Positions 50,001 to 52,175 of a DNA stretch of 64,000 nucleotides are shown here, in pieces. This stretch comes from an uncultured Fretibacterium sp. GTDB taxonomy: Bacteria > Synergistota > Synergistia > Synergistales > Aminobacteriaceae. The stretch covers positions 62,001 through 126,000 of the forward strand of contig CAMHMH010000004.1 of the NCBI GenBank assembly GCA_946186205.1, read 5' to 3'. The position numbers and the translations under genes were made by a program. Position 1 is the first letter of the stretch. Each line of letters starts with the position of its first letter. Below the pieces are notes generated by a model, which worked only from the letters and a program-made list of their open reading frames with translations, was not told where the DNA came from and did not search any database.

Positions 50001-52175
50001 CGTGCCAGTCCACCCGGCGAATGTATAGCCCGCTCGCGTTGGATTCGTAAGAGTGAAGTCGGGACTCTCAATCGTATACGCTTTTGGATTCGTTGCGCCT
50101 GAAGGAAGACTCCCGCCGTTAAGGTCATAGCTTACTGTGTAGATTATCGGTGTCCATGTCGCAGCATAACTCCTATCACCGTATGAGCCTGTGATAACCG
50201 CTACAATATCAGCAGAGCCTTCAATGCCCGTGCCAGTCCACCCCGTGAAAGTATAGCCGACTCTCGTGGGATTCGTCAGCGTGAAATCGGGAGAAGTTAT
50301 TGTGTAGCCCGAAGGGTTATCGGGTGAAACGCTCCCGCCCTGAAGGTCATAGCTTATCGGGTAAATTATTTCGCTGAAAGTCGCCGACAATGTTACATCC
50401 TCTGAAGGCATACTGAACGAGTATTCACCGTCTGAAGATGTTATCTCGTTCGCTGAGTTGTACGCAAGTTTGCTGAGCTCATATCCCGTATCGGCTGAAA
50501 CAGTAACAGTTACCTTTGTTCCCTCAAGTGCTGCTGTTCTGTCTGCACTTATTGCGCCGTGTGTGATTCCATCCGCTATTGTGATGTCGTAAACGTTCAC
50601 GCCTTCAACAGCACCGATCGTTTTGAGCTGTCTCACCGTCAAAAGCTGGTCTGCTGAAAGTGTGTCTGCTGCCGTTGCTCTCACAATGACGTTCAGGTAT
50701 TCGGGGTTCTCATGCACTCTGAAGACCGTATGCTTCACGCCGTCAACTTCTCCGCTGTATGAGACTGGCTGCCATGAAGTTTTGACGTAAACGGGGCTGT
50801 CGTTCGTTATTGCTCCGTTTACTTGTTTGTCGAAACTTTCAGGGAGCGCGCAATGATCGAGGCTGAGTGCACTTCTGTCGTTGGTATTGAAGATTTTATC
50901 CGCTGAGTCATTCCATATGAGCGTGTTTGTCAGGCTTAAATTTGCGTTAGGGAGATAAAATTCACTCTCATCCGCACTAGTGTTATTAACGATTGTGCAG
51001 TTGATGAAGTCCATTGTTCCCTTAAAAAGAACATGGTTAGAATACACTCCTCCCCTGTTGCCCGTGAATGTGCAGTTCGTGATCGTTGCGGGGCCGTCTT
51101 CAAACGCTAAACCGCCTCCTACTGGTGCGCTGTTGCCTGAAATTGTGCAGTTCGTGATTTCCACGCCGTTGTCATCCGGGACGTTGGTGAAATAAAATCC
51201 GCCTCCGCCTGACCCATAATTTGTCGTATTGTTCGACACATTGCAGTTGATGAATTTCGGCCCTGCATGAATGGAGTAAACGCCCGCGCCGGAGCTATCG
51301 CCGGATATGACATTTCCCGAAATATCACAGCTCGTGAGTGTCTGAGTTCCGCCGCCGAGATAAAGACCTGCACCTCTGCCCGTTGACATGTTGTTTGTGA
51401 TGTCGCAGCTCTCGAACGTAACGTTGGCAGAACTCCCACCGAAAAATGCGCCCGTTGCAAAACCGCCTCCATAATTGCCGGAAGTATTTTTCGTAATGAC
51501 GCAGTTTGAGATTTTGCTCTCTGGTTCGCCGTTCATGTAAATACCGCCGCCGCTGTTTTGAGAACTATTTTCGGTAAACGTGCAGTCCGTGATTGTCAGC
51601 TTGCCGTAGTGTCCTGAGGAAATAGCCCCGCCGTAATTACTCGCTGCTTTATTGCCCGTGAATGTGCAGTTAGTGATTGTAGTGGGAGCGTCAATTCCCA
51701 TAGCACCGCCGGATTTCGCTGTGTTGCCCGTGAATGTGCAGTCTGAGATATTCACAGCAATGTTAGAGTTGTTGCTGACGTAGATCCCTCCTCCGTCTGA
51801 TGTGCTGCTGCCGTTCTGGAACGTGAAGCCGTCAACATCTGCGCTTGCGGAAATATTGAGGATCTGAATGCTGCTCCCGCCGTCAAGAATGCTTGCCCCC
51901 GGCGTTTGAGTCGTGAAGTTGGAGTTCCATCCGCCTGAAAGGGTAATCCTCTTGGTGATTGTGAGGGTCTCTGTTGGGGAGTAAGTGCCTGCTGCAACTT
52001 TGATTGTGTCGCCGTAGTCCGCGCTGGCGAGTCTGTTTGTGAGGTTGGCCAGCGTTGAGACTTGATACTCAGCAGCTAATGCCCCCCCCCCCGGGATAAG
52101 TAATACAACTGATACGCATATGAAGAGAATGATGGAAGTGAAACGAGGAAGTTTGATTCTTGGATGTTGTTTCAA
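47100..52175 (-). CDS. Giant surface protein (1691 aa): signal peptide, Pmp-like beta-helix, InlB-type B repeats, Ig-like domains, LRR-like block, Synergist-CTERM-like tail
   Basis: GGGIYVSNNSNIAVNISDCTFTGNTAKSGGAMG repeats; four YTITYxLxGG...GYTFxGWTG...TATWTPI repeats; LDLSSVSGLTEVSL..LKTLELTGSNVTRVDATNCENL LRR-like; C-terminus GSSSGGCESGFGIIALILSAGVFSLRNKEII. Confidence 0.9.
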   Translation of the reverse strand: MKQHPRIKLPRFTSIILFICVSVVLLIPGGGALAAEYQVSTLANLTNRLASADYGDTIKVAAGTYSPTETLTITKRITLSGGWNSNFTTQTPGASILDGGSSIQILNISASADVDGFTFQNGSSTSDGGGIYVSNNSNIAVNISDCTFTGNTAKSGGAMGIDAPTTITNCTFTGNKAASNYGGAISSGHYGKLTITDCTFTENSSQNSGGGIYMNGEPESKISNCVITKNTSGNYGGGFATGAFFGGSSANVTFESCDITNNMSTGRGAGLYLGGGTQTLTSCDISGNVISGDSSGAGVYSIHAGPKFINCNVSNNTTNYGSGGGGFYFTNVPDDNGVEITNCTISGNSAPVGGGLAFEDGPATITNCTFTGNRGGVYSNHVLFKGTMDFINCTIVNNTSADESEFYLPNANLSLTNTLIWNDSADKIFNTNDRSALSLDHCALPESFDKQVNGAITNDSPVYVKTSWQPVSYSGEVDGVKHTVFRVHENPEYLNVIVRATAADTLSADQLLTVRQLKTIGAVEGVNVYDITIADGITHGAISADRTAALEGTKVTVTVSADTGYELSKLAYNSANEITSSDGEYSFSMPSEDVTLSATFSEIIYPISYDLQGGSVSPDNPSGYTITSPDFTLTNPTRVGYTFTGWTGTGIEGSADIVAVITGSYGDRSYAATWTPIIYTVSYDLNGGSLPSGATNPKAYTIESPDFTLTNPTRAGYTFAGWTGTGIDGSAEIVAVLAGSYGNRSYVATWTPITYTITYTLNHASDPGNPASYTIESGVVKLTNPSRNGYTFDGWTGTDLTAKTRSVTIPAGSTGNRTYTANFTPITYTITYNLDGGTADNPSSYTIETETFTLNNPVKDDYSFTGWTGSDVDAIMTTVTIAKGSTGNKTFTANYEIMSAPVLAESSYTLNAYKGQPASVTVTATEGSEIEWTITRGLPSGLSFSGSGKSATISGTPQPGTSGTYSATVTAANTKGTAEASITITIANDFAQSGDVTEGTKTTAETSEGMKTSKSTSFTNGAGSLILSADIAITAGAEDFLAIAGESFETKISVDVTVSIADPDYDTFTYSLNVSGLPEWLTVSGDLTSSDTANEGANKYHFNFTLSGKTMTETNPQAITFTAHAKVSGDTPVLEATLSKDIIVQAVVVVNEIDVSILSIEPVNLTAGTEESRVISASVTALYSDGRSELIRGGDYGITWTTTSRDLASLGMTFSNGVLTVSPSTPAGVYRVPVTATAIFEGAAGTASSVILVTVSDIAPILSADVTAITARRGSTITPITITATQGTNINWSTSGTLVDGLSYNASGNSVVISGTVSEAAATGDYTYTVTASNSAEEASITITITVESSTPVTPETTETTTQEVSTMTDEQLAEKFAGKTDIAITGNTTNEEFAQTLEKISSVTTVTTLDLSSVSGLTEVSLNENSTVENVILTGNESVQTVAITNNTNLKTLELTGSNVTRVDATNCENLEEVNVEGCDTIEYLDVSGSSITSLNARDCSKLQTLTFASCNVSSLNISGCINLENLTCDKNSLMKLNASELRSLRGLYCADQRTRAKVTRFNGRYIFAFATMRALSVTAADDSDSFTAEDLAKVQDVKAYDSNGNELTAEYDSETGEIIFPENAERVVYNYATGFEGVLMDVSISPEASSSSGDVYGVGSSSGGCESGFGIIALILSAGVFSLRNKEII
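49490..50370 (-). repeat. Four tandem InlB B-type repeats within the surface protein, similar at DNA level
   Basis: e.g. ATGCCCGTGCCAGTCCACCC..GTGAAAGTATAGCC and GGTGTCCACGTAGCAACATAACTCCTGTTACCGTATGAGCCTG vs GGTGTCCATGTCGCAGCATAACTCCTATCACCGTATGAGCCTG. Confidence 0.85.
52082..52092 (-). repeat. Homopolymeric G11 tract (C11 on + strand) in the signal-peptide coding region
   Basis: Coding strand ATC CCG GGG GGG GGG GCA TTA GCT GCT GAG. Confidence 0.95.

What the first reader, a model, noticed from the sequence alone, without database searches (positions are those of the whole stretch)
52082..52092. G11 tract in the signal peptide of a 1691-aa surface protein: candidate on/off phase variation switch
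Coding strand reads ATC CCG GGG GGG GGG GCA TTA GCT GCT GAG (I P G G G A L A A E) around the predicted cleavage site. With 10 Gs it reads ...GGG CAT TAG (stop after one codon); with 12 Gs it reads ...GGC ATT AGC TGC TGA (stop after four codons). Slippage by 1 nt either way would abolish the protein. Long poly-G tracts near the 5' ends of surface genes are a known slipped-strand phase variation mechanism in other bacteria; applying it here is inference.
Basis: partly seen in the sequence, partly recalled or inferred. Interest (0 to 1): 0.82.

Follow-up and report, generated by a model that had tools for sequence, protein, structure and literature searches.

The report
Poly-G on/off switch, surface-protein gene
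A run of 11 G bases in the export signal of a giant surface protein is almost certainly a slip-prone on/off switch, and it is one of about two dozen such switches in this gut (probably rumen) Synergistaceae genome, a group where I found no earlier report of this mechanism.

Summary
In detail: G11 lies at 52082-52092 on the coding (-) strand of a 1691-aa gene, in the signal peptide just before the ALA^AE cleavage site, and one base more or fewer closes the frame within four codons. Chance does not explain it. The genome holds 23 G/C runs of 10 or more, where 0.4-1.9 are expected; poly-A runs match expectation. The phase-variation reading is strongly supported by comparison. Most species of the genus carry many such tracts; the other Synergistales genera sampled carry 0-5. 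At least seven other surface or lipoprotein genes in five related genomes carry a poly-G run inside the N-terminal export signal region, and in most of them the frame is currently closed. Tracts shared with the closest relative keep their place but mostly differ in length. A LytTR regulator is frame-split at its tract here and open in the relative. Six further tracts sit in the spacer of TTGACA/TATAAT-like promoters. Mismatch repair genes are present, so repair loss is not the cause. Slippage itself is not shown: no reads were available. The focal gene is an accessory insertion, and its nearest homologues lack a long tract. This is a known kind of mechanism in a new lineage, with unusual breadth.

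The parts
52082..52092 (-). G11 tract on the coding strand (C11 on +): the proposed switch
   Evidence: only G/C run above 6 nt in the window
47100..52175 (-). 1691-aa surface protein gene, TTG start: signal peptide, right-handed beta-helix, InlB-type/Listeria-Bacteroides repeats, putative Ig domains, LRR-like stretch, C-terminal sorting-like tail
   Evidence: tail resembles Synerg-CTERM TIGR04564 below its cut-off (15.5 against 22.5 bits)
52074..52175 (-). signal-peptide coding region (34 codons, LKQHPRIKLPRFTSIILFICVSVVLLIPGGGALA^AE)
   Evidence: Translation; cleavage site inferred from the A-x-A rule; homologues keep ALAAE
52185..52190 (-). AAGGAG Shine-Dalgarno sequence, 9 nt before the TTG
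   Evidence: Sequence on the coding strand
47052..52303 (.). approximate extent of the accessory insertion: absent from relatives G010, G004, G006 and G003, where the flanking genes lie side by side
   Evidence: blastn of the syntenic regions; closest relative's region

Best explanation
The G11 tract is a hypermutable simple-sequence repeat that works as a translational on/off switch. During replication the run gains or loses a G by slipped-strand mispairing. Only lengths of one residue class modulo 3 keep the signal peptide in frame with the mature protein; other lengths end translation within four codons, so no surface protein is made. At G11 the gene is ON. The tract belongs to a genome-wide set of 24 G/C tracts of at least 9 nt: 12 in coding regions, 11 in promoters or just upstream of genes, 1 unassigned. 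These would diversify surface proteins, glycan enzymes, a type I restriction specificity subunit, a LytTR regulator and small membrane proteins within a clone. Shown: the anatomy, the excess, the recurrence, the frame states, and length differences between species. Inferred: slippage in living cells, its rate, and the benefit to the cell.
For: (1) 23 runs of G/C>=10 against 0.4-1.9 expected, while A>=9 (58) and A>=11 (7) are near expectation (20-56; 1-5). (2) Genus-wide: 24 of 25 genus genomes have G>=10 runs, up to 39; 16 genomes outside the genus have 0-5. (3) A pattern for poly-G followed by A-[LF]-A gave 11 hits in 8 of 43 genus genomes against 1 for the reversed pattern. Seven of them are N-terminal signal or lipobox sequences whose frame is closed (L254, L256, L257, L259, L260, L261, L262); one is open (L258). 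(4) Frame splits at tracts inside recognisable domains: LytTR positions 3-45 before and 46-94 after the tract in another frame; Caps_synth from position 48 onwards only after the tract; LTD before and CotH after. The LytTR gene is open in G010. (5) Eight tracts shared in position with G010, lengths 10/11, 13/11, 12/12, 19/9, 18/12, 11/11, 12/9, 12/11. (6) Six tracts between a perfect TTGACA and a TATAAT-like box (P about 2e-10). (7) Poly-G above 7 is in the hypermutable class (1e-5 to 1e-2 per division) in other bacteria (PMC4235727).
Against: No reads, so no direct sign of mixed lengths in one population. The closest homologues (about 77% identical) read T-GG-ALAAE or TGRGALAAE, which allows at most about 8 and 6 uninterrupted Gs: the long tract is not conserved at this locus. 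Assembled lengths of long homopolymers can be wrong (PMC4235727), so single ON/OFF calls are provisional. MutS and MutL are present, so slippage rates may be moderate.
Confidence: 0.87

Rival explanations
1. Passive homopolymer: the tract is a neutral leftover of biased slippage or of lost mismatch repair, with no selected switching role.
For: Not conserved in the nearest homologues of this gene; the gene is an accessory insertion.
Against: MutS and MutL are present across the genus. Only G/C, not A/T, runs are in excess. Tracts concentrate at signal peptides, promoter spacers and surface or glycan genes. Tract positions are kept in G010 with changed lengths.
Confidence: 0.08
2. Assembly or sequencing artefact: the true length differs or is unstable only in the library.
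For: Two G000 contigs end on poly-G runs, and homopolymers are error-prone (PMC4235727).
Against: The tracts recur in more than 20 separately assembled genomes of the genus and eight lie at the same places in G010; errors can change a length but cannot place tracts in TTGACA/TATAAT spacers.
Confidence: 0.02
3. Programmed or transcriptional slippage at the G run makes mixed products from one DNA length, a steady dosage device rather than an inherited switch.
For: G runs can cause polymerase slippage in other systems (own knowledge); an alternative-frame ATG sits 7 nt upstream.
Against: DNA lengths differ between species at shared tracts; the alternative-frame product has no signal peptide and ends at the tract.
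Confidence: 0.03

Closest known systems
pilC1/pilC2 of pathogenic Neisseria (poly-G/C in the reading frame)
   Same: Long in-frame poly-G/C run (G 9-20 listed in PMC5953494) that switches a large surface-associated protein by frame; from my own knowledge it also lies in the signal-peptide region.
   Different: Unrelated protein (here beta-helix, InlB-type repeats, Ig and LRR stretches) in another phylum, in a gut commensal; switching not yet shown.
Campylobacter poly-G phasome (PhasomeIt, PMC6321876)
   Same: Tens of poly-G/C tracts per genome, dominant over other repeats; most core-phasome tracts vary in length between homologues.
   Different: There 77% of tracts are inside ORFs; here about half are in coding regions and at least six lie in TTGACA/TATAAT spacers. 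C. jejuni lacks mismatch repair (PMC4235727), whereas this genus has MutS and MutL.
porA / opc / fetA transcriptional switches of meningococcus
   Same: Homopolymeric G or C tract with graded expression states (porA 12G, opc 11C, fetA 9C listed in PMC4235727); location between -35 and -10 is own knowledge.
   Different: Compared with the other six tracts, not the focal one; spacers here mostly measure 18-22 nt, on small membrane or lipoprotein-like genes.
Chlamydial polymorphic membrane proteins (Pmp)
   Same: Beta-helix surface proteins reported with poly-G phase variation (own knowledge); the focal protein has one weak POMP_repeat match (16.7 bits, cut-off 15).
   Different: No autotransporter domain was found; the C terminus is a sorting-like tail.

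Membership tests
Simple-sequence-repeat phase-variable (contingency) gene, translational type | Uninterrupted repeat long enough to be hypermutable (poly-G above 7) | tested here: met
   G11; threshold from PMC4235727
Simple-sequence-repeat phase-variable (contingency) gene, translational type | Tract in the 5' coding region so that +1 and -1 changes abolish the product | tested here: met
   Codons 28-32 of 1691; stops follow within four codons in both other frames
Simple-sequence-repeat phase-variable (contingency) gene, translational type | Tract length differs between isolates or species at the same locus | tested here: inconclusive
   At this gene homologues have a shorter or interrupted region (protein level only); at eight other tracts positions are kept, and six of the eight differ in length
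Simple-sequence-repeat phase-variable (contingency) gene, translational type | Reversible switching within a clonal population, correlated with tract length | not testable with these tools
   No reads or cultures available
SSR phase variation, transcriptional type (other tracts of this genome) | Tract in the spacer between -35 and -10 boxes | tested here: met
   Six tracts with perfect TTGACA 2-3 nt before the C run and a -10-like box after it; the L093 promoter is conserved in G010 with 10 against 11 Cs
Synerg-CTERM sorted surface proteins (TIGR04564) | C-terminal sorting domain above the curated cut-off | tested here: not met
   15.5 bits (homologue 16.6) against a cut-off of 22.5; resembles, not filed as a member
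Chlamydial Pmp autotransporters | POMP repeats plus C-terminal autotransporter barrel | tested here: not met
   One weak repeat match and no barrel domain

The most novel reading that the evidence does not exclude
The genus runs a large two-layer phasome in the animal gut. Poly-G runs in signal peptides switch big surface proteins. Poly-C runs in unusually long promoter spacers (18-22 nt) tune small glycine-rich membrane proteins and lipoproteins. A switchable HsdS and a switchable LytTR regulator add genome-wide layers. Mismatch repair is intact, so the tracts would be kept by selection rather than by a mutator state.
Probability: 0.4. Interest if true: 0.72.

Novelty: new member of a known kind. 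Interest (0 to 1): 0.62.

Why it matters
Poly-G phase variation is known mainly from pathogens of a few phyla. A genus of gut (probably rumen) Synergistaceae with tens of such tracts would show that contingency loci are also a commensal strategy, and many MAG annotations of frameshifted or missing genes there would be OFF alleles rather than pseudogenes. It gives a directly testable set: tract lengths can be read from existing metagenome reads. I found no report for Synergistota in the held open-access papers; subscription journals were not searched.

Tried and rejected
Loss of mismatch repair as the cause: rejected, MutS_I and MutL_C match in G000 and nearly all of the genus. General homopolymer excess: rejected, poly-A counts are near expectation. 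The alternative-frame ATG as true start: rejected, its product is hydrophilic and homologues start at the TTG position. Orthologous tract in the closest species: not testable, the gene is absent there. The G023 homologue (79% identical) lacks its 5' end because the contig joins another region at codon ~57. A first version of my tract script missed minus-strand tracts and was redone. Synerg-CTERM membership: below cut-off. A promoter for the focal gene: no scored site on its strand.

Full report
The thing itself. The + strand reads C11 at 52082-52092. On the coding strand this is ATC CCG GGG GGG GGG GCA TTA GCT GCT GAG inside an ORF of 1691 aa, 52175..47100. The N terminus LKQHPRIKLPRFTSIILFICVSVVLLIPGGGALA^AE reads as a classical signal peptide, and the tract encodes its c-region. 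AAGGAG lies 9 nt before the TTG. Three close homologues start with M at the same place, so the TTG start is sound. An ATG 7 nt upstream is in another frame; it gives a hydrophilic peptide that ends just after the tract. A change of one G in either direction stops translation within four codons. The protein has a right-handed beta-helix, InlB-type and Listeria-Bacteroides repeats, putative Ig domains and an LRR-like part. The tail resembles the Synerg-CTERM sorting domain, below its cut-off.

Is it more than chance? It is the only G/C run above 6 nt in the window. Markov models of order 1-5 fitted to the window without the tract predict 0.4-1.9 runs of 10 or more G/C in the 2.75-Mb genome; 23 exist, with lengths up to 19. 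Poly-A is near expectation (A>=9: 58 found, 20-56 expected; A>=11: 7 found, 1-5 expected). GGG is 17% of glycine codons in 26 other ORFs.

The genome-wide set. I placed all 24 tracts of 9 or more. Twelve are in coding regions. Open in the assembly: the focal gene, a family 2 glycosyltransferase (C1:659803), a TPP-dependent enzyme (C5:159837) and a 476-aa protein of no known family (C3:167919). Closed or split: Caps_synth (C1:385871), an LTD-CotH secreted protein (C1:733970), a short N terminus before a 154-aa ORF with no Pfam match (C2:135382), a LytTR response regulator (C2:452562), a type I restriction HsdS with two specificity domains before and one after the tract (C3:83594), and a protein of no known family in a sugar-like cluster (C5:162741). 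Two lie at contig ends: an amino acid permease (C5) and a membrane protein (C13). Four open and six closed is near the one-in-three expected of drifting switches. The best internal evidence is the LytTR domain, whose profile positions 3-45 and 46-94 are in different frames on either side of the tract; in the closest relative the same gene is open.

Promoter tracts. Six further tracts lie between a perfect TTGACA, 2-3 nt before the C run, and a -10-like box. About 0.08 such coincidences are expected (P about 2e-10). In all six the C run is on the strand that carries the promoter sequence. Spacers measure 18-22 nt with the best -10 choice. One of these promoters is conserved in G010 in both boxes, with 10 against 11 Cs. 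Genes downstream include small glycine- and alanine-rich membrane proteins and a lipoprotein-like protein. This transcriptional class was not in the finding.

Relatives. G010 is the closest species held (85% identity in the neighbouring peptidase). It has 27 tracts; eight share position with G000 and six of these differ in length. Twenty-four of 25 genomes of the genus have G/C runs of 10 or more, up to 39 in one; 16 genomes from other genera of the order have 0-5.

The same design elsewhere. Three beta-helix-like surface proteins of G009 and two of G007 have the tract in the signal peptide followed by A-[LF]-A, as do a surface-protein-like gene of G056, a secreted protein of G019, and lipobox proteins of G004 and G047. 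The pattern gave 11 hits against 1 for its reverse in 43 genomes. Seven are closed in the assembly, one is open, and one (L252) carries in addition a T8 run that closes the frame before the G run. Poly-G at the end of the signal peptide is thus a recurrent layout in this genus, not a peculiarity of one gene.

History of the focal gene. In G010, G004, G006 and G003 the flanking genes are neighbours and the 5-kb gene is missing, so it is an accessory insertion. Its closest homologues come from metagenome-derived sequences and read T-GG-ALAAE or TGRGALAAE: the long tract is not kept there. The switch at this locus is therefore young, or was lost in those relatives. This is the main caution.

Mechanism. 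Slipped-strand mispairing at the run, with in-frame lengths ON and others OFF, is the best explanation (0.87). Published work puts poly-G above 7 in the hypermutable class and warns that assemblies break or err at such runs (PMC4235727); two contig ends here fit that. Loss of mismatch repair, the known cause of high rates in C. jejuni, does not apply: MutS and MutL are present. Not shown: length variation within a clone, expression, and function of the protein. An adhesin or immune- or phage-facing surface role is inference from its domains.

Compared with what is known. It works like pilC of Neisseria and the Campylobacter poly-G phasome, and the promoter tracts work like the meningococcal porA/fetA type. 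The protein is not a Pmp or a confirmed Synerg-CTERM protein. Searches of open-access papers found no report for Synergistota. I rate it a new member of a known kind, of raised interest for its breadth and its lineage.

Noticed in passing
L087:6077-6086, L088:11428-11437, L092:5696-5707, L093:5685-5694, L095:5878-5888, L080:5957-5970: Six C runs sit in the spacer of TTGACA/TATAAT-like promoters: putative transcriptional phase switches with spacers of 18-22 nt.
   Followed up: partly
L096:5595-5613 (C3:83594): Type I restriction HsdS with a 19-nt C run between its second and a third specificity domain, split in frame; the G010 copy has 9 and is also split. Possible phasevarion.
   Followed up: partly
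L094:5563-5574 and L229:1501-1509: LytTR response regulator split inside its DNA-binding domain at the tract in G000, open in G010.
   Followed up: yes
L082, L084, L085, L087, L093: Several genes behind tract-bearing upstream regions encode small glycine/alanine-rich membrane proteins without a convincing Pfam family (those of L082 and L093 not scanned); role unknown.
   Followed up: partly
L076:14953-14967 (C3:176952): G15 tract in a G-rich stretch downstream of a serine recombinase fragment with no clear gene; unexplained.
   Followed up: partly
L248 (G003:C202): One 20-kb contig with five long G/C runs, among them a FkbM-like methyltransferase, ending in a run of 22 Gs.
   Followed up: no
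L252:1498-1509 (G007:C7): Signal peptide with two homopolymers, T8 and G12, so two possible switches in series.
   Followed up: no
window 30713-39062: Very large flagellin (1233 aa) and FlgK-like hook-associated protein (1526 aa).
   Followed up: no
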